Assembly: GCF_026745355.1 (NCBI RefSeq)
Contig: NC_079205.1
Location: 52,332,283-52,396,282, forward strand
DNA: 64,000 nucleotides
Reading direction: 5' to 3'
DNA from: Beta vulgaris subsp. vulgaris
Lineage: Eukaryota > Streptophyta > Magnoliopsida > Caryophyllales > Amaranthaceae
Below the pieces are notes generated by a model. That model had not been told where the DNA came from and did not search any database. It worked only from the letters and a program-made list of their open reading frames with translations. Of this stretch, positions 4,550 to 62,569 are shown piece by piece. Numbering within the stretch: position 1 is the first letter of the stretch; each line of letters opens with the position of its first letter. A program made the translations under genes and the position numbers.

Positions 4550-4736
4550 CTGCTAGTCGAAGTAGCAGTTTGCAAATGCCCAGAGTTGGGCAGGAGCTGG
4601 TTCCCCACAACTAACCGCTACTCCGAGTGGCGGTTCATGCTCATAAACTGCTACTCTAAGTAGCGGTTTATCATTGCTAACCGCTATTTGTAGTAGCGGT
4701 TTGTATAAAACTGAACCGCTACTTTGAGTAGCGGTT
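4550..4736. repeat. Array of five inverted repeats with core AACCGCTACT
   Basis: Five hairpins lie in 187 bp: 4550-4568 (arms CTGCTA/TAGCAG), 4613-4635 (AACCGCTACT, loop CCG, AGTGGCGGTT), 4645-4669 (AAACTGCTACT, loop CTA, AGTAGCGGTTT), 4679-4701 (AACCGCTA, 7-nt loop, TAGCGGTT) and 4714-4736 (AACCGCTACT, loop TTG, AGTAGCGGTT). Loops are 3 or 7 nt. Such arrays fit subterminal repeats of a DNA transposon, but no terminal repeats or target-site duplication were found, so the host element is unknown. Confidence 0.85.
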
Positions 4737-4873
4737 TAATTTGGCAAAAACAGAAAAAAAAATCCCACATATCATACGTGGACGGTACCCATGGAATTAA
4801 TTTGGACTTTGGCGCATATGAGGAATTAATATTCCTCTATTATTCATGAAAAAAATTCATTATATGTTTGGTA

Positions 4874-12100: not shown

Positions 12101-13266
12101 CTTTTCTCTACATTTTCATCTCACCATAGAATTAATGTATAATATGATCTGTATTCTGTGTTTATGCCAATTGCTAACTGAAATATCAGCTATTGAACTC
12201 ATTGGTGGGTACCAGTTCCAAGCCTCTCGAAATCTTGATTATCATTTACACTTGTTCGTTTTCCTGTTATTAATCAATCAAAGTTCATCTTCGTCCCTTA
12301 ATTTCTCCATTTTAGCACTATAATATGTCCAAGCTAAGTTGATTCTTTGCATGATATAGTGTATTTAGACTCGAGTTGGCAATTCCATTGGTGGATTGGT
12401 TTCTTGATTGTTTTCTTGTCAAGTTCAGGTTCATAAAACATACCTGAAATTGTATGAAACCTAACTAATTACATAATAATATGAGACATATCAAGCGTGT
12501 GGTAACTCCACTCACCACATATCCACTAAAAGTCTCTTTGCTACACAACTCAAAGGGTAGAAGAAGAGTAATGGTTATAAACCTTTACACTCTTTCTTAT
12601 TCTTTCACTGTGGAACAAGAGACTCTTTACATTCTTTTGAAGCAAACTTTTGAGTTTCTTAAAAAATCCTTTATAAACTCCAACAACCTGTACAAAATAG
12701 CAACAGTTGCAACTCAAGGTTCTCACAATATGTACTATGTAAGACGTGGTCCCACATATTTTAACTCGTGGTGCACGAGGAAAAGGCCATGCATAGTGTT
12801 TGGTGAAGTGTGATGTGTGAACATGGGGCTCACTGATCATTGATCAATAATCACCATGATCCTAATTCATAAAGATGCCTCATCTGCTTGGCGAGTATCA
12901 AATTAATCCAATTTTTAGTTAAGAAAAATATTAACTTTCTCATTGAACATTAATCATAAGTTAATAATGTAGAGTGAATTAAATGTTAAAAAGTGTAAGG
13001 TAAGTCTATCTTATAATAATAGTAGTGTACTTAAACTTTTTGTCTAAAAAGACAGTTTTAACTTATATGAGCCCTTTTCTAAGTTAAAGATGTCGTCACT
13101 TTCAAGAGAAATGATCTCTTTAGGTCAAAAAGTTACCTCGTCTTACTATAAATTATTGGAGGATGATCTTATATGAGAAGTTGCAAATGTAAAATAGCGA
13201 GTCTTATATAAGTTCGTTTTACAATGATTATAATGCAAGTCCACTTTGCTTTTTATCTGTCTTATA
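12101..13266. other. Intergenic DNA, no gene seen
   Basis: Overlapping open frames on both strands at 12481-12840 have neither domain features nor biased composition and are probably repeat-derived. The rest is AT-rich without recognisable signals. Confidence 0.45.
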
Positions 13267-13619
13267 TGTTAGAGATTAATCTAGAAAATTTAGATGAAAA
13301 ATGTCAGAAAAATATCTAATGTGTATCTAGAATTGTCTTGTGAAAAATCTAAGATATTTGAACTTGAAAGAAAAATCTAGAAGTTAGGATACAACAATTA
13401 TAAATATGTAATATGTACATGAGCTCAAATGAGGGAGAGCCAAACAAAGTGAGCTCCACACAAAATATTAGGAAAGGTAGAAACAAAGGATTTTACCAAG
13501 GTTAATGAGAGACATGAGCTCTCACAAACACACTTGTACAATTAATTATAAATGAAAATTCAATTTTACGATACTATTCGGGTCCATCAAAACTTCCGTA
13601 TGCGCCACATATTCTATCA
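13267..13619 (+). repeat. 5' LTR of the non-autonomous element
   Basis: 353 bp, from TGTTAG to CTATCA. It contains TATAAATATG (about 13400), a plausible core promoter. Confidence 0.93.
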
Positions 13620-13632
13620 TGGTATCAGAGCC
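13620..13632 (+). promoter_or_regulatory. Primer-binding site (initiator tRNA-Met)
   Basis: TGGTATCAGAGCC immediately follows the 5' LTR. It is the standard plant minus-strand primer site complementary to the 3' end of initiator methionine tRNA. Confidence 0.93.
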
Positions 13633-13842
13633 GGAACGTGATAACGCCAACATCCGAGTAGCAAGAAGAAGATAGAAGATGCAAATTATCAAGTTGAAGG
13701 TTGAAGCAAGATAAAAGAAGTTGAGGTAAGTGTTAAATTTAAAGTATGTAGAAGAATTTAAATTAAAGGTGAAGATAAAAAAAAATGGTGAAGGGAAAAT
13801 TTGAAAATAAAGTGGAAAAGGATTAAAATGATAAGTTGGAGG

Positions 13843-14319
13843 GTTGATGACATGAGCATCAACAAAATGAAGTTAAAAATGGTAGGGAAAAGGCTAAAAC
13901 AAAGAGGAAGCTAATGACAAAGGCATTAGCAGAGTAGGTTGGTGACAAGAGCACCGACAGTTGGGAAGAAGAAGTAAAAAAAAAAAAAAAAAGATAAGAA
14001 AAAAAAGGAGAAAAAGAATATTGGAACTTGCTAATGACATCAGCATTAGCAGTGGTGGGTGGTGACATGAGCACCACAAGAAAGAAAAAAAAAGATTGAA
14101 GATTGAATGGTTGACAACATGGGTGTCAACATAATGATCAACAAAAATCAATGAAAAAAGGAGTTGTTGGTAACCTGAGTACCAACAAAGAAAAGGAGAT
14201 AAAGTGATAATTGGGGGAGCAAGTTGGTAACAAGGGCACCAACACAAAATGTTGAAAATCAACAATATGGGAAGAAAATGAAAGTGAACTTGGAGATAGT
14301 TGATGACAAGTGCATCAAC
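13843..14319 (+). repeat. Array of nine covarying hairpins
   Basis: Nine 19-21-nt inverted repeats: 13843-13863, 13910-13930, 13938-13958, 14030-14050, 14059-14077, 14110-14130, 14166-14186, 14223-14243 and 14299-14319. Each has a 6-7-bp stem and a 7-nt loop. Stems include GTTGATG/CATCAAC, GCTAATG/CATTAGC, GTTGGTG/CACCGAC (one G-U), GTTGACA/TGTCAAC and GTTGGTA/TACCAAC, so bases change in pairs. Loops stay close to ACAWGRG. Hairpins 2+3 and 4+5 form a duplicated pair. The spacers are A/G-rich. The eighth has an A-C mismatch next to the loop. Confidence 0.93.
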
Positions 14320-14385
14320 AAGACTTTGAAGAGACCTTTGGAAAAAGTATGATGAAGTACAAGAATTTTCAAGATTAAGGGGGAG

Positions 14386-14738
14386 TGTTAGAGATTAATC
14401 TAGAAAATTTAGATGAAAAATGTCAGAAAAATATCTAATGTGTATCTAGAATTGTCTTGTGAAAAATCTAAGATATTTGTACTTGAAAGAAAAATCTAGA
14501 AGTTAGGATACAACAACTATAAATATGTAATATGTACATGAGCTCAAATGAGGGAGAGCCAAACAAAGTGAGCTCCACACAAAATATTAGGAAAGGTAGA
14601 AACAAAGGATTTTACCAAGGTTAATGAGAGACATGAGCTCTCACAAACACACTTGTACAATTAATTATAAATGAAAATTCAATTTTACGATACTATTCGG
14701 GTCCATCAAAACTTCCGTATGCGCCACATATTCTATCA
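14386..14738 (+). repeat. 3' LTR of the non-autonomous element
   Basis: 353 bp, nearly identical to the 5' LTR; preceded by the polypurine tract and followed by the TTATA duplication. Confidence 0.93.
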
Positions 14739-15000
14739 TTATAATGTTACATTAGTATGTGAGATTTGATTTTTGATCACAAAATCCATTTTGTATACTT
14801 AAGTTCGATTATCTTTACTTGGGTCATTTGTGCAAGAGGTTTTATGAAGTTTGTACATTTATATACATATTACATTGCAATTAAAACAATAATTTATTCT
14901 TATTAAATACTTTTGTTTAATAATAGATGTATCATATCGACTTTTTACACTATTTGAATATCAATTTTGACCATCTTTACTTACTAATATATAAAAATAA

Positions 15001-23065: not shown

Positions 23066-24959
23066 CTAGCCATTCACAATAGCTCCACCTGCACATAAAA
23101 CATGAAACATATGAACTATAGAAAACAAACCAAATAACATTCAAATTCTGAAGAAATATTGAAGACTGTACCATTAGGATGGATGGTTTGGCCGGTAATA
23201 TAGGAGGAATCTGCATTGCAAGCAAGGAACACATAGGAAGGCGCGACCTCACTAGGCTGCCCCGCCCTTTTCATGGGCACCTCTGACCCAAAGCTCTCAA
23301 CCTCATCTTCCTTAAATGAGGCTGGAATCAGGGGAGTCCAGATAGGACCTGGGGCTACCGCATTGACTCGGATGCCCTTCTGTACAAGCTGGAGGGCCAA
23401 GCCCCTGGTGAAGGCCACAATAGCACCTTTGGTAGAAGTGTAGTCCAGTAATGAAGGACTGCCTTTAAATGCGACGATTGATGTAGTATTGATGATGCTG
23501 GACCCTTCTCGCATATGCTTCAGGGCATGCCTATACAAATGCAGACAGAAAATCACCACCGACATAATTTACAAACTTCCAAAATGGTGTGGGATAAAAT
23601 AATAAATAAAATTTTCGAAATGGTATTAATTTGGAAATATATGAAAAAATCAGGCGTTCTTTGGGGTCATTAGATGTTTATCTCTTCTACTTAACTTATT
23701 CATAATCCTTCAGGACTGCACTTCATATTTTCCATAAGTTGCAGTAAAGTCAATGGAAAGCAGAGGTATTCATACTATGAAATTGGGAATTGTAACATTC
23801 CATTTCACTTGCCTCTAACAGCAGAAGTGGAGAAAACAGTGAACTAGAGCAATTAACTCTCAAATTGATCTTCTTAAACGGACCCCAGTTACCAAAAGAA
23901 AACATAAGGAATTTGTTAATGTTCTCACTTCTCAGAAGTGAACTGCAACATTGTCCTCAGTGGGTGTTGCAGACTTCTTGTAGTAGCTGGACTTTTCTAT
24001 GAAGTATGAAATAATTAGTCATGTGATTTAGTGCTCACCTTGTGACTAAGAAATGGGAGAAGATGTTTGTCCTGAATACCCTCTCAAGCTTCTGCTCACT
24101 GACCTCTTCTATAGTCGAGCGTTCGTACTGCTCGGCACAATTATTGACCAGGATATCTATGCGCCCAAAGGCATTAACCACCTCGTCGACCACCCTTTTA
24201 CAGTGCTCATCATAACCCAAATCTGCTGCAACTGCTATGGGGTCTTTTGCACCAGTCCCCTTGGCACTTTTGATAAGCTGAAGGGTATCCACAGCATCCT
24301 TGTCCTCGTGACCCTTGACATATGTAAAAGCTACAGTTGCACCCTCCAGAGCAAAGTGGTGGCATACGGCCCTCCCTATTCCTGAGTCTCCTCCAGTCAC
24401 CAGAGCCACTTTCCCCTGCCATCAGACCAATTCAGACAAAAATCTAAATACGTGTGTATGTAACGTTTCTAACAAGCTGAAAGTGCTCGAAAGATTCCCT
24501 TAGTAGCTTGCACTTTAAGATGGCATAAGTTAATGAATAGAAATTTGCATGCAATACAAGGTATCCACCTTGAATGTACTTGTTAATGGATCTCTAACTC
24601 CTGAGCTCAGCTATCTTTCTATTAAGAATGGAACTGTGTATATCTGGACCATGTCTAGAAGACATTAAACCAAGATCTTGTTCTATAGAAATTTATGAGC
24701 TGAATCTTCTTCCTTCAATCAAGAGTCTAACATCTAAAGGAGGACTCTTGATTAAATTTCGAGTTAATGGGAGTAGCCTTTTTCATATTTCAAACTCAAT
24801 AGATGAGATAGTTGAGAAGAACAATCAGCTATATACCTGCAGTTTGTTGGCTGGCTTGTATTGAGAGCGAGCCGTTTCGGGGATAGGATCCATCACATGC
24901 TGTTTCCCAGGCTGAGTCTCTTGTCTCTGTGCCGGGAAATTTCTTCCATTAGTGGCCAT
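23066..24959 (-). CDS. Glucose/ribitol dehydrogenase-like short-chain reductase, copy 1
   Basis: Four exons on the minus strand: 24959-24837, 24415-24039, 23530-23172 and 23088-23066, giving 293 residues. It is a classical NAD(P)-dependent SDR: cofactor loop [10 protein letters not shown] (residues 48-57), NNCAEQ after strand 4, and catalytic S184, Y197 and K201 ([10 protein letters not shown]). The N-terminus (FPAQRQETQPGKQHVMDPIP) is typical of plant glucose and ribitol dehydrogenase homologues, which are seed- and ABA-associated; the family includes an Arabidopsis chloroplast NADPH aldehyde reductase. No targeting peptide precedes the start, so it is probably cytosolic. All three introns match copy 2 in position and phase, showing tandem duplication. 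The substrate cannot be told from sequence. Confidence 0.92.
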
Positions 24960-28272: not shown

Positions 28273-30403
28273 CTAAGCATTCACTATAGTCCCACCTGCA
28301 CACCACAAACATAAACACAAGCACACACATTATAGCCCAAACCAACACCTAAACAAGCAGGAATAGATAACACTAGAGTTGATTTCTCACCATTGGGATG
28401 AAGGACCTGCCCAGTTATGTAAGACGAGTCAGCATTACAAGCAAGGAAAACAAACGAAGGCGCAACCTCGCTAGGTTGCCCAGCCCTGTTCATAGGCACT
28501 TGACCACCGAAACTTTTGACTTCATCCTCCTTGAAGGAGGCTGGAATTAGTGGAGTCCAAATGGGTCCTGGGGCGACTCCGTTGACACGGATGCCCTTCT
28601 GCACAAGCTGCAAAGCTAGTCCTCTGGTGAATGCCACTATTGCACCTTTGGTGGAGGTGTAATCGAGCAACTTGGCATTTCCCTTGTATGCATTCACTGA
28701 TGTAGTGTTGATGATGCTAGCCCCTTCCCTCATATGCTTCAGTGCATGCCTTAAACATGAGAGTAACCCTAGTCATAAACATGTACAATTTTTTGACAAC
28801 AAATTTGAACCACCACCCACAATTCAAACTTCAAAAGGCGGATCTAGGGGGTGGCCTACCCAAGCCTCGGCCCACCCATGATCCAAAATATCTATAAGTA
28901 ACCTATCTGAGATAGTAATGCAAATAAGTATGGTGGAACAGGTGGTTGGAGCATGAGTATACTAAACATCAAGTGATGAGTTCGATTCTAAGGACATCTA
29001 TTTTTGGTTTTCGATATATATTGTCTTCGAGAATAATCAGTGACATTTCATAATCTATATAACCAAAATTGAAATGGGTAGTTCTATGTATGTAAAATAT
29101 TGTACCACAAAACAAAAAAAGAGCTAGTTAACATTTACCTTGTCATGAAGAAGTAAGAGTAGATGTTAGTCCTAAACACCCTATCAAGCCTGGGCTCATC
29201 AATCTCCTCCACAGTAGTACACTCATACTGCTCAGCACAGTTATTGACCAAGATATCTATACGTCCAAAAGCATTGGCCACTTCATCGATGACCCTCTTA
29301 CAGTTCTCGTCGTACCCCAGATCAGCCGGAATCGCGATAGGATCCTTGGCATCGGAGCTTTTGTTACTCTTGATCATTTGAAGGGTGTCATGAGCATCTT
29401 TGTCTTCTTGACCCTTTACATATGTAAAAGCTACAGTTGCACCTTCCAGTGCAAAACACTGGCACACTGCTCTTCCTATCCCTGAGTCTCCTCCTGTCAC
29501 TAGAGCCACTTTCCCCTGCCATTACAAGGTAAAGATTTTCAGACTTCTGATAGTTTGCTAATCTGATCAATGATCCCATTTTACAACAATATCGACCATC
29601 TTATCTTTGTTAGATAGTCATATAATATAATACCTAAATGAGTTATTATACTTGGATGATTTATTATAAATCTAATGCTAGCTAGAGTAGCTACTAGCTA
29701 GAAATAAGTTTTTTAATACCAAAAACATAGCCCCTCTGTTCCTTTTTATTGGTTTTAAAGAACCTAACATAGCTAGGTTCAGAGATAATTGAGCATGACA
29801 TGACGTTGTTGGGATCTCATATAGGCTTTTACGTCCCTGGCGCGTAAATGGACCTTTATGAGCCTCATTGTGACCTATTTTCTTCGACATAAAAAAAACT
29901 AAACTAAAATAAATAATAATAGAAAAGAGTAAAAATATATTTCACTTAACTAAAAATAAGCTAGCTAGGAAGAACATGCATGAGCCTATCATAATGCTCA
30001 ATTACTTTGACCATCAAAAATATATATCTGTAGTATCCTACTTTATCTGTAACAAAACTTGATATGATATATAAGAGCAAAAACAACACACCTGGAGCTT
30101 GTTGGCGGGTCTATAGTCTTGGCGAAGAGCTTGAGGAATAGGATCCATGGCATGCTCTTTCCCAGGCTGAGCTTGCTGCCTCTGTGCCGGAAATTTGTCG
30201 CCGCCCGACGCCATTCTTATCGTCTGTAGCTGTTCTTGTTGTTGTTGTTGTTGCTGCCGCCTTCTTCTTCCACCACCAACGATTCTATTCCGGTACAAGG
30301 TGTAGGAGTAGCTTCTTGAGAAAGCTCTACCAACAACACTTATATTATTTGTGCTTGTTCCTACTGCTACTGCCCTGGATTGTACCACTCCACGTAAAAA
30401 CAT
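28273..30403 (-). CDS. Glucose/ribitol dehydrogenase-like short-chain reductase, copy 2, with targeting-like extension
   Basis: Four minus-strand exons: 30403-30092, 29515-29139, 28749-28391 and 28295-28273, giving 356 residues. The SDR core matches copy 1, with the cofactor loop [10 protein letters not shown] from residue 111 and catalytic S247, Y260 and K264. Unlike copy 1, the frame continues upstream of the usual MASGGDKF start (ATG at 30214) to an ATG at 30403. This adds 63 residues rich in Arg, Ser and Val with no acidic residue before position 57, including RRRR and a run of seven Gln from a GTT repeat (plus-strand reading). That fits a plastid or mitochondrial transit peptide. The TATA-like site near 30464-30475 places the upstream ATG inside the transcript. 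Both starts may be used. Intron 2 holds a diverged dispersed repeat (28830-28990). Confidence 0.9.
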
Positions 30404-31258: not shown

Positions 31259-33935
31259 TGTAACGCCCCGACCTCTAAGCATCTTTATTAGGTTAATAAA
31301 TCTTGATTATTAGCAGCGGAAGTCCTAGCTTTTGGTCGGTGCGTTACTGCCGTACTTTCCATTAGGAAAATACAAGGCAACATACTTGCATAAACGTATA
31401 ATAACATGGAACTTAAACGTACTAGGTTATATTAAAGTAAAACAGAGTTGATGTTAATTAAACGAAGTAAGTACTTAAGTTACAAAAGCTTTAATTGTTT
31501 GAGTTATTCTAATAACATTTCCTCACTGCTAAGCCATGGCGTCATCCCCATCGGTACCTAAAACAGAAAAACAAAACGTCATGAGCCGAGGCTCAGTAAC
31601 ATACTACTCTAACAACGTAAATTCATTTCAACTCATTTTATTTGAAAACAGGGAGAAGAGAATATCGCAAACATCATTTCATAAACATATATCTTGATAA
31701 TAGAAATCCAACCATTTTGAGATATTATCCTTTATAATCTTACATCATTTTTAATGGTAACTTGGCAAGTACAACATCATAACATCATAATCATTAATCC
31801 GAAAGGCGGTCACAACAAAGGTGACACTTGCGGTGCCCATAACATTAATCCGAAAGGCGGTCACAACAAAGGTGACACTTGCGGTGCCCATAACATATAC
31901 ATATCCGAAAGGCGGTCACAACAAAGGTGACACTTGCGGTGCCCATATCCGAAAGGCGGTCACAACAAAGGTGACACTTGCGGTGCCCATAAAGTACTGC
32001 CAAGAACCGTCTTTCACTTTCATTTATCATGTTTCGTTATTTTTATATTTATGTGTAAAATGCTTAAGCATCATGAAAACCAATTCATCATCATAAATAT
32101 CATTAGCAAAACATTTCATATCCCGCAATCCATAAACACATATCATCAAAACATTATGTAAAAGCGTCATAAAACGTAGTTGGAAGGGTGTGCGGGTGTT
32201 AGCAGTAGACGTTACCTCGAGTCGCGATTATTATACTTGATAGCCGGGTGAGGCTTGTAATATCCCTTTTCCTTTCTAATCTATTCAAGGATTAATAAAG
32301 ACGACTTATTAATATTTTATTCTAGATTTAAACTCTACGATCCATTTCCATCATGTGTCTATGAATTACTAGAGTGTTTATGAACTTAATAGTTATGGAA
32401 CCTTATTACAACATTTATTACTAAAACTATACTTCTTGAATTTAGTAACTTGATTACTAACTTATGTAAAACTATTTAATTAGTAATAATCATTACTTCT
32501 AAGATTCATGAAAATTCATGTTTAATGACTTATAAATTATAGAACTTTCATACTTTACTTAAACTTTTAATAGTAACTAGTTATTCCACTCTAACTTGTA
32601 CTAGAGATATTTCATACTATTGATACCCATGTATAAGTGACTATTTAATTTACAACTTAAAAGTGATACTCATTTAATCAAGCTAAAAGTGGGATTATAA
32701 TTGTAGATTAAGGTTATTAATATTATACTTAAAAATCCAAGTGTACTTAATTAGTATTACTTTATACTACATAAACTTAAGTTATATCTATGTGAACATG
32801 AAACTATAACTTAATTAACCAAAGATACCCATTATATATAGTAAAGGTGTAATATTAGTGATTATGTCATAATCTATATTATACTATAATTAGGTTGTAT
32901 AATTATTTCATAAAATGGAATTTATAATATTAAATTAATTAACTAAGTCCAATCAACTTGATTTATTAACCATACTAAGTTTCTATATTTTAACTTGAGA
33001 GGTTAGAAGTACACTTATGCATAAACAAAACAAGATAATAATTCAAGGTAGTTTAGTTAATTAGTCCAACTTACTATATGGGTTATGTTAATTAATCACT
33101 AAGCCCAACTAACATAACTCAAGTTTTTTTTTTTCAAATTTATAAAAGGAGGGAAAGGTATGTAATATACCTTCACTAAGTGAAGTAACAAGGAGAAGAC
33201 GGGCAGTGCAGTGGGGTCGGAGCTCCGCGAGCAGGTGGCGGTGCAGCAGGCGGGACGGACGGCAGGACGGCGGTGCGGCGCGGCTGGCGGCAGGTGCGGC
33301 GCGGCAGCAAGGAGGCTGCAGCGAGATGGGGGAGGGGAAGAGTGCAGCGAGAAGGAGAGGAAGAGGAAGAGGAGGGGTGCAGCGTGGGGAGGGAGAAGGA
33401 GGTGGCGGTGCTGGCGGGGTGGCTGGCTGGTGGTGCGAGTCTGGCGCGCAGTGAGGGAGGCCGACAGGTGGTGGTGGTCGGAGAGTGGCCGGAAAATAAG
33501 GAGGTTGGGTGGTAGTGTTGAAAGTTTTCTGATTTTTGGATGGAGATGAATAGTAAAATCAGCATACTATTTATAGTAATTTTAGGAACAAAGCTAATTA
33601 AAATAATGGTGGATTAATGGTGAAGTATACTTGGGGGAAGGAGTTCTAGAAGCCTTGGGGAGCAAGGTCATGGAGCTTGAGGAAGAAGATGGATTGTGTG
33701 GATGGTGAATTTCCTTTTTTGGAAATTTTCTAATTCCTTTACTAATACTAAAATAGTGATTTTTCCTACTTCCTTTTTAATGTATTACCAATCTAACTTA
33801 GCTTATTATTGAATACTTGATTTTATTTTATTTTCAAATATATTAGAGAAGTGATTAAGTAAATAAATAAATTTTAAATAATTTATTTAAGCTAATTATT
33901 AATGTTAATCAAGTTTGAATTTTCGGGATATTACA
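31259..33935 (-). repeat. 3' LTR (left copy in the window)
   Basis: 2677 bp. In element orientation it begins TGTAATATCCCGAAAATTC and ends GGTCGGGGCGTTACA. It holds a TATA box CTATAAATAG (33567-33576), a GC-rich leader (33195-33500) and four copies of a 44-bp repeat. The remainder is AT-rich and non-coding. Confidence 0.93.
31797..31990 (-). repeat. 44-bp tandem repeat in the left LTR, 4 copies
   Basis: Units at 31797-31840, 31848-31891, 31903-31946 and 31947-31990. Each begins ATCCGAAAGGCGGTCAC and contains a small inverted repeat GTCAC-N7-GTGAC. Gaps of 7, 11 and 0 bp separate them. Confidence 0.93.
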
Positions 33936-33950
33936 TCCTCACCCCCTTAG
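33936..33950 (-). promoter_or_regulatory. Polypurine tract
   Basis: In element orientation CTAAGGGGGTGAGGA directly precedes the 3' LTR, the expected plus-strand primer site. Confidence 0.85.
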
Positions 33951-34108
33951 AATAAGTTTCGTCCTCGAAACTTGCTCATGTGATATAAAGATTCAAACAT
34001 CAAACTTGCTCAATCACATATTTCAAAAACATGCATTTCATTCACATATCAAAACAAAAGTTTACAGAAAATCATCTAAGCAAATAGATGGGGGTATCTT
34101 GCTTTCAT

Positions 34109-37100
34109 TTGATTCTACTTCCCACGTGGCCTCAGACGATGAATGGTTAGCCCATAAGATTTGACCATATGGATTGCCTTATTCCTGAGCTGCTTTTCTC
34201 TACGATCGAGAATTTCAATCGGTTTCTCTTCATACGACAGATCGTTCCTCAATTGCAAGGCTCGTGCCTAATTACGTGGCTTGGATCAGAAATATACTTC
34301 CTCAACATCGATATATGGAAGACGTCATGCACTCGATCCAAGTCGTGGGTAAAGCTAATCATAAGCCACTTCGTTGACTCGCTCCAGGATTTCGTACGGA
34401 CCAATATATCTCGGGCTCAGCTTACCAGACTGTCCAAATCTCATGACACCTTTGCTAGGTGAAACTTTCAGAAAGACATGATCACCTACCATAAATTCTA
34501 GTGGCCTCCTTCGATGATCCGCATAACTCTTTTGTCTACTTTGCGCAGTCTTAATCCTAGATTGAATAAGTCGTACTTTTTCTGTCGTTTCTTGTATCAA
34601 GTCAGGCCCAATCATTCGTGCTTCGTCGATGTCACTCCAACAAAGAGGTGTTCTACACCTTCTCCCATAAAGTGCTTCATATGGTGCCATCTTGATGCTA
34701 GCCTGATAGCTGTTGTTATAGGAAAACTCCACCAATGGCAAGTATTTCTCCCAACTTCCATGGAAATCCAACACACATGTCTTAGCATATCTTCGAGGGT
34801 CTGAATTGTTCGCTCGGTTTGACCTCGGTTTTGCCGGGTGAAAGGCGGTACTGAAATTGAGTTTGGTGCCAAAAGCTTTCTGTAGCTCCTTCCAAAATTT
34901 TGCTTGAAACCTCGAGTCTCGATCGATACAATAGAACTTGGAACACCATGTAATCTGACTATCGTGCTCACATATAACTCTGCTAGCTTGTCTAGGCTCC
35001 AATTATTTCTGATCGCCAAGAAATGTGCCGATTTAGTCAACCTGTCCACTATCACCCAAATGCTATTCATACCTCGGGATGATGGTGGTAACCCAACAAT
35101 AAAATCCATAGAAATCGAATCCCATTTCCATGTTGGAACATCCAAAGGCTGCAATAATCCCGCGGGTCTCTGGTGCTCTATCTTGATCCTCTGGCATCAG
35201 ACACCTTGTCACATATTCAGCAACTTCCTGCTTCATATTACTCCACCAAAAATTCTGTTTCAGATCTTTGTATAACTTATTTCCTCCAGGATGAATGGAA
35301 AAAGGACTGTTGTGAGCTTCATCTAGTATCTTCTTCTTTAACACCTCGTTATTAGGAACACATAATCTTCCTTGAAATCTCAGTGTCCCGTCTTCCTGGA
35401 TCACAAATCCGGTGATTTCCTTTCTTCACATCACTCTTTATTTCTCCATCTCCGAATCTCCATTCTGAGCCTCTTTTATTTCTTCCAACCATATCGGTCG
35501 TAGCTCCAATGCATTCAGGTATGCGCCTCGATTCCTCTGAATGATTTCCACTTTCATCTTCTCTAAGTCATCGCAGATGGCTTTGGGAAGGGTTAAGGTT
35601 GTGTTTAAGTAGGCTTTTCGGCTTAAGGCATCGGCTACAACGTTAGCCTTTCCAGGGTGATACTGAATGTCGAGATCATAATCTTTCAGGAGCTCTAACC
35701 ATCTTCGTTGTCTCAAGTTCAACTCTTTTTGAGTGAAGATGTATTTAAGGCTTTTGTGGTCGGTAAAAACCTTGCACGGAACACCGTAAAGGTAGTGTCG
35801 CCATATTTTGAGAGCAAACACCACTGCTGCTAATTCGAGATCATGAGTAGGATAATTTTGCTCATGAGGCTTGAGCTGTCGGGAAGCATAAGCTATGACT
35901 TTCTCGTTTTGCATCAGAACGCATCCCAATCCATGCTTAGAGGCATCACTGTACACTAAAATCCGTCGGTTTCGGAAGGAAGTGTAAGAACAGGGGCAGA
36001 GGTGAGACGTTTCTTTAATTCTTGGAAGGCTGATTCACATTTATCATTCCATTCAAACTTGACAGACTTCTTCACCAATCGAGTGATGGGCAGAGCTATC
36101 TTAGAGAAGTCTTGGACGAATCTTCGATAATATCCTGCTAAGCCCATAAAACTCCGAACCTCGGGGACGTTGGTAGGTCGAGGCCACTCCATTATAGCTT
36201 TTATCTTTTCAGGATCAACAGAGACTCCATTTTCAGAAATGATGTGCCCCAAGAAGGCTACTTCTTTCAACCAGAATTCACACTTCTTCAACTTCGCATA
36301 CAACTGGTTTTCTCTTAACACCTCCAAAACTTTTCTCAAATGTTCTTCGTGCTCACTCAGGCTCCTTGAAAACACCAAGATGTCATCGATGAACACGACA
36401 ACGAACTTGTCGAGGTAGGGCTTGAAGACACGGTTCATTAGGTCCATGAAAACAGCGGGGGCATTTGTCAACCCAAATGGCATCACCGAAAACTCATAAT
36501 GACCATATCGAGTCCTGAATGCGGTCTTTGAGATATCTTCGGGCTTAATACGGAGTTGATGGTATCCGGATCTCAAATCAATCTTTGAAAAGGTAGTTGC
36601 ACCTCGGAGTTGGTCAAATAGGTCATCGATGCGAGGGAGTGGGTATCTATTCTTGATGGTGATTTTATTTAACTCTCGATAGTCGATGCACAATCTCATT
36701 GTCCCATCTTTCTTCTTCACGAATAAGACTGGTGCTCCCCATGGTGATACACTTGGCCGAATATACCCCTTCTCGAGCAATTCGTCCAACTGCTTCTTCA
36801 ATTCTTGCAATTCTGCTGGTCCCATACGGTAAGGTGCTTTTGAAATGGGTGCAGATCCTGGGATAAGATCAATGTTGAAGTCTATTTCCCTTTGCGGAGG
36901 CATGCCAGGTACCTCTTCTGGAAACACATCGGGATACTCACAGACTATTGGGATGTCTGGTAAGGAGAGTTCGGGGGTGGTCACGTCAACCACATGGCAT
37001 AAGAATCCGTAACACCCCTTTGCTAGTAATTTGAAAGCCTTCGCAGAAGAGATGGTTTCGGGCTTGGCTTTTCTTCTTTGATAGGAAACTTTACATCCAT

Positions 37101-37618
37101 CTGGTCTTCTAAGGAACCTCATGATCAAGGCAGTTAATGTCGGCTTTATACTTAGACAACCAATCCATCCCCAAAATCACATCAAAGTCGGTCAGGTCAA
37201 ACTGGACTAAGTCCACGAGGAATTCACACTTCTCTATGAGGATAGGACAATCCCTATATAGGATTTTACATGGAACAGATTCACCATTTGGAAGGGTGAT
37301 AGACATGGATGAGAATTCAGGACATGATTTAGCTTTTAATCTTTTAGCAAATGACGTAGATATAAATGAATGAGAAGCTCCAGAGTTTAATAAAACATAA
37401 GCCGGTATAGAGTTAACAGGAAAGGTACCGGTAATGACGGTGTCATCAGCCTCAGCTTCCTCTCTTTGCATCATGAACACTCTTCCAGCTTGAGGAGGTC
37501 CTCTGGGAGGGTATCTGTTGCTGTTGTTGCTGGTGTTGCCACCATAACCAGAATTCTGCATAACTCTTTGATCTCCACTGGGACACGGTTGGTGACATTT
37601 CCAATCCACGATCACCAA
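34109..37618 (-). pseudogene. Frameshifted pol (protease, RT, RNase H, integrase, chromodomain)
   Basis: Reading right to left: an aspartic protease domain (37109-37618), where the family's catalytic DSGA reads NSGA; reverse transcriptase (35956-37128) with an intact YxDD-type box read as FIDD and the usual fingers and palm motifs; RNase H (35438-35956); integrase with zinc-binding region and catalytic core (34355-35404); then a chromodomain-like end near 34109-34340. The frame changes between protease and RT, between RT and RNase H, before integrase and at least twice within integrase. These breaks and the Asp-to-Asn change would prevent a functional polyprotein. Confidence 0.9.
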
Positions 37619-38584
37619 GAGGGCAATTCTTAATTACATGGCCTGGCTTACCACAACGGTAACATTGATCGCTTCCCCATCGACATTCTCTTGCTATATG
37701 GCCCAACTTATTACACTTGTTGCAACGAGGAACTTGTTTCTGACCATTGTTGTTCCCCATGTATCCCGTGTTCTGCCTCTTGAAAGCATTGCTTGGTTGG
37801 CCTCCCTGAGAGTTCCCCTTTCTCTTCCCATTCTCATATACCTCCTTTTGCAGCTTCGTTTTTCTCTCAACATTTATAGCTCTATCATATAGCTCTTGGT
37901 ATGAGCTACTCATGTGTGCTGCCAACTTTACTTGGATATCAAGGTTTAGACCTCCTTCGAAGCGGTTCATCCTCTGTCGATCAGTAGTTACCAAGTCAGG
38001 AGCGAATCGAGCCAACTCATTAAACTTTACGGCATACTCCAATACAGACATGCTCCTTTGTTTCAGTGGATAAATTCAGACTCCATTTGCAGTTGCAGGG
38101 ACGGGGGATAAAACTGTCTTCTCATAGCTTCTTTCAACTTTTCCCAACCAAATCCCGGTTGATCATGCATCTCCTTTGCAGTTTTCCACCATAAATCAGC
38201 TTGTCCTTTCAGATAAAAGACTGCAAAGTTGACCTTCCACTTGTCAGGGCATTGAGTAGCATCAAACAACTTCTCCATGTTGTTGAGCCATTCCTCAAAC
38301 TCCGTGGGGTCTGGCTTGCCGTCATAGGTTGGCGGCTTGTGAGTGGAGAACTTCTTGAACATGTTAGAGCATTCCTCTTGCTCAGTTTTCGGTCGTTGCC
38401 TGTTCCCTTGCAGAATCTCCATCATCATGAGTCCCATCAAGTTCAATTGATTCCCGTTTGTTTCTCCGGAGGAATCCTTGAAAATAGGGTCGTTTCGAAG
38501 TGCGTCGAGTCTTGCTCTCATTTCCTCCAAATCAGCGTTGTTCGCGTTTCCTTCGTTAGTGCGTTCGCCTTCACTTGATGCCAT
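37452..38584 (-). pseudogene. Frameshifted gag
   Basis: Starts at the ATG at 38584. The capsid-like region includes the retrotransposon gag signature around FYLKGQADLWW; a frame change near 38055 leads to a second frame ending with two CCHC zinc knuckles (CNKCNKLGHIARECR and CYRCGKPGHVIKNCP). Another frame change near 37590 precedes the protease. Structural protein of the element's particle; broken here. Confidence 0.9.
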
Positions 38585-38841
38585 CCTCTAAAATATGAAA
38601 CGTTTCACGTTGTTACGCTTTCATAACAACCATAGTAACTAACCGTTATAAAATAATGTAAAATGATCCCATCCCGTTCCTAGCACTCACACTCGTATTA
38701 TCATTTACATTACTCATTATCTTATTTTTATTACTTAATGTTACTATCACCTTTTTATTTACAATTTATAGCTTTTCTTATACTTCCTATTTAAAGTGAC
38801 GTAAAACCGTGAAGGTTTTTACTTAGGGCTTCAGAACCGTT

Positions 38842-38853
38842 GCTCTGATACCA
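38842..38853 (-). promoter_or_regulatory. Primer-binding site (initiator tRNA-Met)
   Basis: In element orientation TGGTATCAGAGC lies 3 nt after the 5' LTR end. Confidence 0.92.
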
Positions 38854-38856
38854 CTC

Positions 38857-41495
38857 TGTAACGCCCCGACCTCTAAGCATCTTATTAGGTTAATAATCTT
38901 GATTATTAGCAGCGGAAGTCCTAGCTTTGGTCGGTGCGTTACTGCCGTACTTTCCATTAGGAAAATACAAGGCAACATACTTGCATAAACGTATAATAAC
39001 ATGGAACTTAAACGTACTAGGTTATATTAAAGTAAAACAGAGTTGATGTTAATTAAACGAAGTAAGTACTTAAGTTACAAAAGCTTTAATTGTTTGAGTT
39101 ATTCTAATAACATTTCCTCACTGCTAAGCCATGGCGTCATCCCCATCGGTACCTAAAACAGAAAAACAAAACGTCATGAGCCGAGGCTCAGTAACATACT
39201 ACTCTAACAACGTAAATTCATTTCAACTCATTTTATTTGAAAACAGGGAGAAGAGAATATCGCAAACATCATTTCATAAACATATATCTTGATAATAGAA
39301 ATCCAACCATTTTGAGATATTATCCTTTATAATCTTACATCATTTTTAATGGTAACTTGGCAAGTACAACATCATAACACATTCATAATCATTAATCCGA
39401 AAGGCGGTCACAACAAAGGTGACACTTGCGGTGCCCATAACATTAATCCGAAAGGCGGTCACAACAAAGGTGACACTTGCGGTGCCCATAACATATACAT
39501 ATCCGAAAGGCGGTCACAACAAAGGTGACACTTGCGGTGCCCATAAAGTACTGCCAAGAACCGTCTTTCACTTTCATTTATCATGTTTCGTTATTTTTAT
39601 ATTTATGTGGTAAAACATGTCTTAAGCATCATGAAAACCAATTCATCATCATAAATATCATATAGCAAAACATTTCATATCCCGCAATCCATAAACACAT
39701 ATCATCAAAACATTATGTAAAAGCGTCATAAAACATAGTTGGAAGGGGTGTGCGGGTGTTAGCAGTAGACGTTACCTCGAGTCGCGATTATTATACTTGA
39801 TAGCCGGGTGAGGCTTGTAATATCCCTTTTCCTTTCTAATCTATTCAAGGATTAATAAAGACGACTTATTAATATTTTATTCTAGATTTAAACTCTACAA
39901 TCCATTTCCATCATGTGTCTATGAATTACTAGAGTGTTTATAAAATTAATAGTTATGGAACCTTATTACAACATTTATTACTAAAACTATACTTCTTGAA
40001 TTTAGTAACTTGATTACTAACTTATGTAAAACTATTTAATTAGTAATAATCATTACTTCTAAGATTCATGAAAATTCATGTTTAATGACTTATAATTATA
40101 GAACTTTCATACTTTACTTAAACTTTTAATAGTAACTAGTTATTCCACTCTAACTTGTACTAGAGATATTTCATACTAATTGATACCCATGTATAAGTGA
40201 CTCATTTAATTTACAACTTAAAAGTGATACTCATTTAATCAAGCTAAAAGTGGGATTATAATTGTAGATTAAGGTTATTAATATTATACTTAAAAATCCA
40301 AGTGTACTTAATTAGTATTACTTTATACTACATAAACTTAAGTTATATCTATGTGAACATGAAACTATAACTTAATTAACCAAAGATACCCATTATATAT
40401 AGTAAAGGTGTAATATTAGTGATTATGTCATAATCTATATTATACTATAATTAGGTTGTATAATTATTTCATAAAATGGAATTTATAATATTAAATTAAT
40501 TAACTAAGTCCAATCAACTTGATTTATTAACCATACTAAGTTTCTATATTTTAACTTGAGAGGTTAGAAGTACACTTATGCATAAACAAAACAAGATAAT
40601 AATTCAAGGTAGTTTAGTTAATTAGTCCAACTTACTATATGGGTTATGTTAATTAATCACTAAGCCCAACTAACATAACTCAAGTTTTTTTTTCAAATTT
40701 ATAAAAGGAGGGAAAGGTATGTAATATACCTTCACTAAGTGAAGTAACAAGGAGAAGACGGGCAGTGCAGTGGGTGTCGGAGCTCCGGCAAGCAGGTGGC
40801 GGTGCAGCAGCGGGACGGACGGCAGGACGGCGGTGCGGCGCGGCTGGCGGCAGGTGCGGCGCGGCAGCAAGGAGGCTGCAGCGAGATGGGGGAGGGGAAG
40901 AGTGCAGCGAGAAGGAGAGGAAGAGGAAGAGGAGGGGTGCAGCGTGGGGGAGGGAGAAGGAGGTGGCGGTGCTGGCGGGGTGGCTGGCTGGTGGTGCGAG
41001 TCTGGCGCGCAGTGAGGGAGGCCGACAGGTGGTGGTGGTCGGAGAGTGGCCGGAAAATAAGGAGGTTGGGTGGTAGTGTTGAAAGTTTTCTGATTTTTGG
41101 ATGGAGATGAATAGTAAAATCAGCATACTATTTATAGTAATTTTAGGAACAAAGCTAAATTAAAATAATGGTGGATTAATGGTGAAGTATACTTGGGGAG
41201 GAAGTTCTAGAAGCCTTGGGGCAGGTCATGGAGCTTGAGGAAGAAGATGGATTGTGTGGATGGTGAATTTCCTTTTTTGGAAATTTTCTAATTCCTTTAC
41301 TAATACTAAAATAGTGATTTTTCCTACTTCCTTTTTAATGTATTACAAATCTAACTTAGCTTATATTATTGAATACTCGATTTTATTTTATTTTCAAATA
41401 TATTAGAGAAGTGATTAAGTAAATAAATAAATTTTAAATAATTTATTTAAGCTAAGTATTAATGTCAATCAAGTTTGAATTTTCGGGATATTACA
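38857..41495 (-). repeat. 5' LTR (right copy in the window)
   Basis: 2639 bp. Same layout as the left copy: TATA box at 41128-41137, GC-rich leader at 40758-41065, and three copies (not four) of the 44-bp repeat. Many of the differences noticed between the LTRs are short indels. Confidence 0.93.
39395..39544 (-). repeat. 44-bp tandem repeat in the right LTR, 3 copies
   Basis: Units at 39395-39438, 39446-39489 and 39501-39544. One unit fewer than in the left LTR. Confidence 0.93.
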
Positions 41496-60488: not shown

Positions 60489-60500
60489 TGGTATCAGAGC
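60489..60500 (+). promoter_or_regulatory. Primer-binding site (initiator tRNA-Met)
   Basis: TGGTATCAGAGC lies 2 nt after the LTR end. Confidence 0.9.
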
Positions 60501-60540
60501 AGGCTATTCTCGTAAGACTCACATCTAGAGAATAGAAATC

Positions 60541-62569
60541 ATGAACACACAAGACGACGTTTGCGACAAGTATTCCAAGTGTCCAATTTTCAACGGAAAG
60601 ATTATGGATGGTGGAAGACCAGGATGAGGATAACATTCAAGGTTCTGACTTTCAATGCTGGAGAATCATAAAGACTGGACCTCTTCCTATTCAAAACAAA
60701 GACGATGAAGGTAACATGTTCGACAAAGAGGAAGAGGAGTATAATTCTGTTGACTACGGAAAGGCAGAAAAGAATTTCAAAGCTATGAGTATTCTCCAAT
60801 CTGGAATTGGACCTGATGAATATTCAAGAATCTCTGCATGCACCACTGCTAAGGAAATTTGGGACACATTGGAATTGGCCCATGAAGGTACAAACGAGGT
60901 AAAACAGTCTAGGATAGATTTACTAGTCCAACAATATGAACTGTTCACAATGACTAAGGATGAATCTATTAAAGATATGTTTACCAGATTTACACTAATA
61001 ACTAATGAACTAAGATCTTTAGGAAAAATCTATTCTTCTGAAGATTTAGTTAGAAAAGTGTTAAGAAGTTTGACTAATAAATGGCTTCCTAAAATAACTG
61101 CTATTCAAGAGGCTAAGGATTTATCAAAACTCTCACTAGAACAACTCATTGGTTCCTTAATGACTCACGAACTTGTTTTAGACTCTAAATCAAGTGAACC
61201 AAAGAATAAAGGGTTGGCCTTAAAAACTGAAGTAGAAACGGATGATAGTGAAAGTGATGAAGAAGTAGCGTCTCTAACTAGAAAGTTTCAAAATTTCTTA
61301 AAAGAGAACATGAGCAACAACTTCAGGAGAAGTAGAAACTTCAAAGGTAAAGGAACTTCTTCTAACCCTAAGAAAAGTGCTACTAACTCTGGTTGTTTCA
61401 AGTGTGGTGAGTATGATCACAGGATTAAAGAATGCCCTCTGTGGGATGAAGAAAAGCCTAGAGAAAAACGAGAGCAGTCTAAGAAGGAGTACAAGAAAGC
61501 CATGATCGCAGCAGTCTGGGGAGACTCGGATTCTGACGAGGATCAGTGCCAGGCTCAGAGCCACGAAGCAAAATTAGCTGAATGCTGTCAGACAACTCTG
61601 AAGACGGCACTGAGCCATGACGACTCACATCTATGCTTGATGGCTAAAAGTTCGAACCCTCTTGAAGAGGAAGAAGACAGGAGGTAAGTCTAACTTCTTT
61701 AAAACCTTCAATTCATCTTCTTTCCAAAAGTAAGCTTGTCATATTGCTTGAAAACGTAATTGATGATTGTCAAACATGAATGATAATTTTGATAACATGA
61801 AAAGGAAATAAAAAATTTGACCAGGCAAAAATTGGATTAGAAACAGAATATAAGGAATTACTTAAAGAAAAAAACTCTGATGAAAAGGATTGACGAGAAA
61901 GACTTAGAGATAAACACACTAAAACAAGAAAAGACTCTAGTTGATAATCTCGTAAATAGCTCAGTGCCAGTCACTGAGTTCGAAGCTGAAAAATCTAGTC
62001 TTGAGGAACAAATTGAAAAATTAAATCACGAGTTGAATGATCTTAAGAACTCAAGACAACAATCTAGAATTGTTCCACTAATGCTGCCTAGTGATGCAAA
62101 GATAAGAGAAGAGTTGGATAAAGTTAAAAGAGACTTAGAGACTTCCCGAAAAAGAAGTAGTGATTTAAATACCTCAGTTGAATTTTTGGAATCACAACTT
62201 TCTATTGCTCGTAAGATGCACGAAAAATGGACTAATGGGATGAATGCTCTAAATTACTTAACTTGCACCACAAACAACATGAACAAAACTGGATTAGGAT
62301 ATACTGACCAGCAACCCAGTGCCAGGCTCAGTGCCAGAACCTTCGAAAGAGACTTTCGAAAGAGAAAATACGTGGGCCTTCCTGAATATCTAATTTGCAA
62401 TTTTTGTGGTAATAATGGTCATCTAATTGACGACTGCAACAACAAAAAAAACCGAATTGCAAAGAATGTCAAACATGTTACTCAAATCTGGGTTAGGAAA
62501 GACATACTAGATGCTCAACGTAAGAAAAAGGGACCCAAGAAAATATGGGTTCCTAAAACAAACAAGTAA
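60541..62569 (+). pseudogene. Broken gag of the Sirevirus-like element
   Basis: The likely start ATG at 60541 goes out of frame near 60600. The main open frame (60608-61687) carries the copia-type gag core (EIWDTLELAHEGT, LEQLIGSLMTHE) and a zinc knuckle CFKCGEYDHRIKECP. After an interruption at 61688-61879 a second frame (61880-62569) has a Lys/Glu-rich coiled coil and a second knuckle CNFCGNNGHLIDDC, ending KKIWVPKTNK. It forms the particle shell in the family; this copy is disrupted. Confidence 0.82.

What the first reader, a model, noticed from the sequence alone, without database searches (positions are those of the whole stretch)
13843..14319. Nine covarying hairpins in a gene-less LTR retrotransposon
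Seen directly: nine inverted repeats with 6-7-bp stems and 7-nt loops, at least five different stem sequences, and changes that preserve pairing (T-A to C-G at stem position 2, G-C to A-T at positions 4 and 7). Loops stay near ACAWGRG. This is the pattern expected when a structure, not a sequence, is under selection. In an element with no proteins it could act as packaging or dimerisation signals, a protein-binding array, or a structured non-coding RNA. I know of no described plant TRIM/SMART family with such an array, but could not search.
Basis: partly seen in the sequence, partly recalled or inferred. Interest (0 to 1): 0.92.

Follow-up and report, generated by a model that had tools for sequence, protein, structure and literature searches.

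The report
Hairpin array in protein-less retrotransposon
A short plant jumping gene that encodes no recognisable protein carries nine small hairpins whose paired bases change together while their loops stay alike, a pattern that likely marks RNA docking sites for a borrowed protein, predicted to be the particle protein of a helper element, that would package its RNA.

Summary
Window 13267-14738 is a young LTR element of 1,472 bp with both ends intact: two 353-bp LTRs, TTATA target duplication, primer site, polypurine tract, no recognisable protein. Between 13843 and 14319 lie nine hairpins with 6-7 bp stems and 7-nt loops. Six are perfect 7-bp stems (0.035 per shuffle; never more than 1 in any of 1,000 shuffles). 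Five of seven stem pairs change on both sides. 61 of 63 cells pair; none of 500 shuffles and none of 39,271 simulated unconstrained families reaches that. Starts fall in all three reading frames, so it is not a codon repeat. New here: each LTR holds one more hairpin with the same loop (ACATGAG) on an unrelated stem (1 of 20,000 LTR shuffles). Linkers are A-rich and nearly C-free. In an unrelated palindrome array in the window, stems are mostly fixed and loops vary. Best reading: an RNA docking array, probably for the Gag of a helper element, as a packaging signal. The structure is well supported; partner and function are inferred. No other genomic copy could be examined: the genome search was asked 29 times and never answered. 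Nearest known kind: TRIM elements; my searches of the held papers found none described with such an array.

The parts
13262..13266 (.). target-site duplication TTATA, left copy
   Evidence: sequence read
13267..13619 (+). 5' LTR, 353 bp, TGTT...ATCA; TATAAA at 13399
   Evidence: 2 mismatches to the 3' LTR
13506..13524 (+). LTR hairpin TGAGAG-ACATGAG-CTCTCA (same loop, unrelated stem)
13620..13640 (+). primer-binding site TGGTATCAGAGC... (initiator-Met tRNA type; assignment recalled)
13843..13863 (+). hairpin h1 GTTGATG-ACATGAG-CATCAAC
13910..13930 (+). hairpin h2 GCTAATG-ACAAAGG-CATTAGC
13938..13958 (+). hairpin h3 GTTGGTG-ACAAGAG-CACCGAC (one U.G pair)
14030..14050 (+). hairpin h4 GCTAATG-ACATCAG-CATTAGC; h4-h5 is a diverged duplicate of h2-h3
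14059..14077 (+). hairpin h5 GTGGTG-ACATGAG-CACCAC (6-bp stem)
14110..14130 (+). hairpin h6 GTTGACA-ACATGGG-TGTCAAC
14166..14186 (+). hairpin h7 GTTGGTA-ACCTGAG-TACCAAC
   Evidence: in an unrestricted fold it pairs with h8 instead
14223..14243 (+). hairpin h8 GTTGGTA-ACAAGGG-CACCAAC (A.C at the closing pair)
14299..14319 (+). hairpin h9 GTTGATG-ACAAGTG-CATCAAC
14371..14385 (+). polypurine tract AAGATTAAGGGGGAG
   Evidence: sequence
14386..14738 (+). 3' LTR, 353 bp
14625..14643 (+). LTR hairpin, 3' copy
14739..14743 (.). target-site duplication TTATA, right copy

Best explanation
This is an LTR retrotransposon without a recognisable protein whose interior carries nine hairpins with covarying stems and a conserved ACnnnnG loop, and these likely act in its RNA as an array of docking sites for a protein supplied in trans, most probably the Gag of a helper retrotransposon that would package it. 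Shown by sequence and calls: the LTR element with TSD, primer site and polypurine tract; the nine hairpins; paired changes in the stems; the loop invariants; a hairpin with the same loop on an unrelated stem in each LTR; and A-rich linkers almost without C. Inferred: that linkers stay unpaired, that the hairpins form in the plus-strand transcript, that a protein reads the loop (A1, C2 and G7, probably with a C-G pair across the loop and a bulged A) while the stem serves only to present it, and that repeated weak sites give strong multivalent binding. Untested: that the protein is Gag, and that the outcome is packaging into virus-like particles before reverse transcription from the PBS and PPT.
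For: Structure: 6 exact and 9 near-exact hairpins against 0.035 and 0.69 expected. Covariation in the nine: 61 of 63 cells pair (U.G counted as a pair), 5 of 7 pairs and 12 of 63 cells change on both sides; 0 of 500 shuffles for cells paired, double-change cells and covariation score, 3 of 500 for number of pairs; partners slid by 1-3 columns give 22-60% pairing. With the LTR hairpin, on 6 pairs: 59 of 60 cells, 6 of 6 pairs and 16 cells doubly changed. Simulated families without pairing constraint, matched in divergence: 0 of 7,135 (star) and 0 of 8,136 (coalescent) reach the pairing; with mutation hot spots mirrored between the arms, with and without AT bias, 0 of 24,000. Loops vary less than stems (mean pairwise difference 0.26 against 0.34). 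LTR hairpin: a 6-bp Watson-Crick stem with an ACAWGRG loop in 1 of 20,000 LTR shuffles, with ACNNNNG in 21 of 20,000. Of 17 plus-strand ACAWGRG sites in the window, 6 sit on stems of 5 bp or more and all 6 are in this element; minus strand 0 of 13. Of 580 plus-strand ACNNNNG sites 12 do, 10 of them in this element; minus strand 3 of 553, none in it. Linkers 3.8% C against 21.7% in hairpins. Precedent for parasitic packaging: BARE2 RNA in BARE1 particles (PMC3735527, passages).
Against: No other copy and no helper element was seen, so the family's own variation is unknown. All statistics rest on one element and on perhaps five to seven independent paired events (my estimate). The fold cannot tell strands apart: the minus strand folds more stably against its shuffles (z -5.9 against -4.0, 20 shuffles each), and of the two one-sided changes one is a wobble on plus (h3) and the other on minus (h8). 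Without a span limit h7 and h8 pair with each other and their own stems are near zero; with a 60-nt limit h5, h8 and h9 reach only 0.42-0.54. A covariance model from the nine interior hairpins scores the held-out LTR hairpin at 16.4 bits, E 0.066, below one unrelated site (37589, 18.2 bits) and level with a repeat site (32442/40002, 16.4 bits); a sequence-only model does not list it at E 10. Folding of the 5' leader (start assumed at 13430) is no better than shuffles (z -0.08). The link to Gag is by analogy only.
Confidence: 0.42

Rival explanations
1. RNA docking array for a host or other non-Gag protein: the same loop-recognition logic, used for nuclear export, stability or translation avoidance of the element RNA rather than packaging.
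For: The same structural evidence; nothing in the sequence points to Gag itself.
Against: A protein-less retroelement needs packaging, PBS and PPT for its life cycle (established knowledge); a host-protein array would be an extra. No match to any Rfam family.
Confidence: 0.2
2. Mutational origin without selection: reverse transcriptase or repair templates one arm of a short palindrome on the other, so stems are corrected in pairs and covariation arises without function.
For: Retroelements pass through reverse transcription, where hairpins can cause template switches (recalled); h2-h3 and h4-h5 are copies of one block; h8 looks like a half-way state of h7.
Against: Such events should also flip loops (inference); 9 of 9 loops, and the LTR one, keep one orientation. 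It does not explain loops more conserved than stems or the LTR hairpin with an unrelated stem. Mirrored hot spots were simulated and fail, but arm-to-arm templating itself was not simulated.
Confidence: 0.16
3. DNA-level palindromes: binding sites of a dimeric transcription factor or other DNA-binding protein.
For: Dyad-symmetric repeat boxes exist in Sirevirus LTRs (PMC2829016, passages); an unrelated palindrome array with mostly fixed stems lies at 4550-4740 of this window.
Against: A half-site read by a protein should keep its letters (inference); here the letters change and symmetry is kept, while the centre is conserved and always in one orientation. In the 4.6-kb array four copies show no double change in the eight inner pairs and loops vary, although a fifth copy (4550) differs from most of them by a paired C-G to T-A change.
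Confidence: 0.12
4. Relic: the array was inherited from a larger ancestor where it had a role and is now unselected.
For: The two LTRs differ at 2 of 353 positions, so only recent history is visible in this copy.
Against: Pairing is kept in 61 of 63 cells, and a profile scan finds only one weak further unit (14122) in the interior, so the hairpins are either whole or absent rather than in all stages of decay.
Confidence: 0.1

Closest known systems
TRIM / SMART elements (terminal-repeat retrotransposons in miniature), e.g. the 289 plant subfamilies of Gao et al. 2016 (PMC4717578; passages and section 22 seen)
   Same: Two short LTRs, short TSD, PBS, PPT, no proteins; would depend on a partner.
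   Different: 1,472 bp is at the upper end (average 685 bp, 77.9% under 1,000 bp; gene-carrying ones of 1,172-1,449 bp). The passages read mention no hairpin array; 'secondary structure' and 'stem' occur 0 times in that text.
BARE2 parasitising BARE1 (PMC3735527, passages read)
   Same: Works like it: an element without its own Gag whose RNA is packaged in another's particles and that is said to keep dimerisation and packaging signals.
   Different: BARE2 is a large element (recalled); no array of loop-conserved hairpins is described in the passages read.
Retroviral packaging signals with NC-binding hairpins (PMC7599994 and PMC7395439, search listing and abstract starts only; loop details recalled)
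   Same: Several short hairpins that show G-containing loops to zinc-knuckle proteins.
   Different: Few non-repeated hairpins in the leader (recalled), not nine related copies in the interior.
Sirevirus repeated palindromic motifs (PMC2829016, passages)
   Same: Element-specific dyad-symmetric repeats in many copies in a plant Copia group.
   Different: They lie in LTRs (and beside env), mostly have a CGG-CCG core, and are read as regulatory DNA boxes; here no repeated CGG-CCG box, a conserved 7-nt loop and varying stems.
Retrozymes (PMC4918200, passages)
   Same: Small non-autonomous plant LTR elements, repeats of 300-400 bp, PBS and PPT, functional RNA structure.
   Different: No hammerhead ribozyme here (Rfam); 5-bp rather than 4-bp TSD.
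Bivalve TRIM and GalEa hairpin site (PMC6934838, passages)
   Same: An inverted repeat in the interior of a TRIM.
   Different: One 9-10-bp inverted repeat with 25 bp between the arms, for GalEa proposed as a PBS substitute; here nine, beside a normal PBS.

Membership tests
TRIM / SMART | two direct LTRs flanked by a short TSD | tested here: met
   353-bp LTRs, 2 mismatches, TTATA on both sides
TRIM / SMART | PBS and PPT present | tested here: met
   13620 and 14371-14385; tRNA assignment recalled
TRIM / SMART | no gag, pol or other protein | tested here: met
   longest plus-strand frame of the element 49 codons; the longest minus frame (166 codons, 13894-14394) has no homologue at E 0.01 among 722 candidates; shorter minus frames (up to 108 codons) were not searched
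TRIM / SMART | small size | tested here: inconclusive
   1,472 bp; average in PMC4717578 685 bp, but members of 1,172-1,449 bp are named there
TRIM / SMART | repeated family in the genome, mobilised in trans | not tested
   The genome search gave no answer in 29 tries
Retrozyme | hammerhead ribozyme in the LTR | tested here: not met
   no Rfam family at E 5 or better in 13200-14800
Cassandra / Helenus / Ajax | 5S rRNA- or tRNA-like sequence in the LTR | tested here: not met
   no Rfam match, no tRNA gene by ARAGORN; strongly decayed copies could be missed
Sirevirus repeat boxes | repeated CGG-CCG palindromes in the LTR | tested here: not met
   the LTR has a single CGG (13579) and a single CCG (13596)
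Retroviral-type packaging signal (Psi) | bound by Gag and needed for packaging | not testable with these tools
   needs wet tests and a helper element

The most novel reading that the evidence does not exclude
A retrotransposon that gave up all proteins has turned its interior into a multivalent RNA handle: ten hairpins with matching loops on freely evolving stems, strung on unpaired A-rich linkers, that capture another element's Gag. It would be the first cis-acting RNA code that I know of in a TRIM, and a general way to find which helper moves which TRIM.
Probability: 0.33. Interest if true: 0.82.

Novelty: new variant of a known kind. Interest (0 to 1): 0.62.

Why it matters
How TRIMs are moved is open: a 2016 survey that searched 48 plant genomes found larger related elements for only 11 of 289 subfamilies, four of them with full proteins, and says that origin and transposition mechanism remain ambiguous (PMC4717578, section 22 and passages). 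If a TRIM carries a readable RNA handle, the handle gives a direct test: find helper elements with the same loop hairpins and test Gag binding. It also gives a search model (stem variable, loop ACnnnnG, many copies) for structured RNA in other protein-less elements, which, as far as I know, TE annotation by sequence does not look for.

Tried and rejected
Codon repeat: rejected, hairpin starts fall in all three frames. Chance palindromes of AT-rich DNA: rejected (in-window control). Plain tandem repeat with shared ancestry only: rejected by simulation, and a profile scan of the interior finds only one weak extra unit (14122) beside the nine. Kissing-loop dimer signal: not favoured, 3 of 9 loops hold CATG. 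Known RNA family: none. Retrozyme, Cassandra or Helenus type: see the membership test.

Search for relatives that led nowhere: motif in viral contigs, 3 records, all with the same phage coding gene, chance; two LTR patterns in viral contigs, 0; LTR/PBS pattern in genome contigs, 1 bacterial record, judged chance from its title and not read further; plasmids, none; protein search with the long minus-strand frame, none; six pieces of the element as text in papers, none. The covariance model of the nine interior hairpins was a weak out-of-sample test for the LTR hairpin (E 0.066, two other places as good or better); the sequence-only model did not list it at all. Literature searches; one search was an argument error.

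Full report
What is there. Window 13267-14738 is an LTR element with both ends intact. The LTRs are 353 bp each, begin TGTT and end ATCA, and differ at 2 positions. TTATA flanks both ends. Right after the 5' LTR lies TGGTATCAGAGCC, the usual plant initiator-Met primer site (assignment recalled). Right before the 3' LTR lies AAGATTAAGGGGGAG. The interior of 766 bp has no plus-strand frame over 49 codons. The minus strand is open for 166 codons, as expected of purine-rich DNA, and that frame has no homologue at E 0.01 among 722 candidates; shorter minus frames were not searched. No Rfam family matches and no tRNA gene is found. The genome is a plant's by its genes and repeats (Copia gag by Pfam; others by eye); the species is not known to me.

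The hairpins. Six are exact 7-bp stems around 7 nt; shuffles give 0.035 on average and never more than 1 in any of 1,000. Their start frames are 1,2,0,2,0,1,0,0,1, so no protein repeat makes them. h2-h3 and h4-h5 are two copies of one block (65 nt at 74%; 46 nt at 83%). Between these copies the h2/h4 stem is identical while 3 of 7 loop letters and 3 of 7 letters of the short linker differ, and the h3/h5 stem went from 7 to 6 bp, most simply by loss of one base on each arm (inference).

Covariation. On the nine: 61 of 63 cells pair; 5 of 7 pairs have double changes in 12 cells; shuffles 0 of 500 for cells paired, double-change cells and covariation score, 3 of 500 for the number of pairs; the number of further pair types is no higher than in shuffles (493 of 500 reach it). 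Adding the LTR hairpin on 6 pairs: 59 of 60 cells, all 6 pairs, 16 cells, 0 of 500 for these measures and the score; further pair types again not unusual (269 of 500). Since related copies inflate such tests, I simulated families of nine without pairing constraint at the same divergence: none of 7,135 star and none of 8,136 coalescent families reached the pairing; the number of doubly changed pairs alone was reached in 0.14% and 0.05%. With hot spots mirrored in both arms, with and without AT bias, none of 24,000 reached the pairing, and 1 of 3,000 in each of two of the eight settings reached the double-change cells. Counted as events rather than cells, I estimate five to seven independent paired changes and two unpaired ones (inference).

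The loops and the LTR hairpin. A1, C2 and G7 are fixed in all nine; loops differ less between copies than stems do (0.26 against 0.34). Six of the 17 sit on a stem of 5 bp or more, and all six are in this element; two of these are the LTR hairpin TGAGAG-ACATGAG-CTCTCA, once per LTR. Of the other 11, one is h8 (closing pair broken), two are a second, stemless copy in each LTR, and eight lie elsewhere. With the looser formula ACNNNNG, 12 of 580 plus-strand sites sit on such stems, 10 of them in the element, and 3 of 553 minus-strand sites, none in it. One of 20,000 LTR shuffles has a 6-bp hairpin with an ACAWGRG loop, 21 of 20,000 with ACNNNNG. A covariance model of the nine interior hairpins finds the LTR one only at E 0.066, with two unrelated places as good or better, and the sequence-only model does not list it, so this link rests on the exact loop and not on the models. 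In single-hairpin folds 7 of 10 put a C-G pair across the loop with the first A bulged out; in the local fold its probability is 0.50-0.58 in 7 of 11.

Linkers and folding. The eight linkers (288 nt) are 56% A and 3.8% C, against 32% A and 21.7% C in the hairpins, so linkers can hardly pair with each other (inference). The whole interior folds better than shuffles on both strands (z -4.0 plus, -5.9 minus, 20 shuffles each); this does not decide the strand. Without a span limit 9 of 11 hairpins form with their stems at 0.65-1.0 while h7 and h8 pair with each other; with a 60-nt limit h7 forms, but h5, h8 and h9 fall to 0.42-0.54 (h8's closing pair is 0). The assumed 5' leader as a whole folds no better than shuffles.

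An in-window contrast. At 4614-4735 lie four copies of AACCGCTA-N7-TAGCGGTT and a relative at 4550. There the stems are nearly fixed and the loops vary; two of the four copies have a one-sided change and none a double change in the eight inner pairs, although the relative at 4550 has a C-G to T-A pair. That is what I would expect of DNA sites. The array in question shows the reverse.

Mechanism. A protein-less LTR element must borrow Gag, reverse transcriptase and integrase. LTR ends, PBS and PPT serve the last two; choice of RNA by Gag needs an RNA signal (established knowledge, recalled). BARE2 shows that packaging of a parasite's RNA in a helper's particle happens in plants (PMC3735527, passages). 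I therefore place the array as a Gag docking site: alike loops read by the protein, stems free to change if paired, many copies on flexible linkers for avidity. Every step after the structure is inference. The main alternative with the same structure is another RNA-binding protein. DNA palindromes and templated arm correction explain less.

Limits. One copy only. The own-genome search was asked 29 times and gave no answer, so the decisive comparison among copies is missing. The literature statement is limited to the held library and the searches; most subscription papers are not in it. Papers were seen as passages (PMC4717578 also one section; PMC2829016, PMC3735527, PMC4918200, PMC6934838), as outline and abstract (PMC10886601), or as search listing with the start of the abstract only (PMC7599994, PMC7395439).

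Noticed in passing
window 4550-4740: A second short-palindrome array (AACCGCTA-N7-TAGCGGTT, four copies and a relative), with nearly fixed stems and varying loops; looks like subterminal repeats of a DNA transposon (inference).
   Followed up: partly
window 60489-62569: Start of a Copia element: primer site at 60489, gag with PF14223 and a CCHC knuckle at 60545-61684; BLAST of the hairpin element against the window shows no LTR-like match there.
   Followed up: partly
window 32292-41400: Repeated copies about 7.56 kb apart (e.g. 32292/39852, 32442/40002) flank Gypsy-like gag-pol frames on the minus strand, which are broken into several frames.
   Followed up: no
window 13397-13524 and 14516-14643: The LTR holds ACATGAGCTC twice, once as the hairpin and once without a stem (13417), close after a TATAAA at 13399.
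   Followed up: partly
window 14187-14222: The linker between h7 and h8 holds TTGGGGGAG, similar to the polypurine tract next to the 3' LTR; possibly an internal second priming site.
   Followed up: no
window 23116-23568 and 28284-28772: Two similar short-chain dehydrogenase gene pieces on the minus strand (PF13561 in the first), probably a gene duplication.
   Followed up: no
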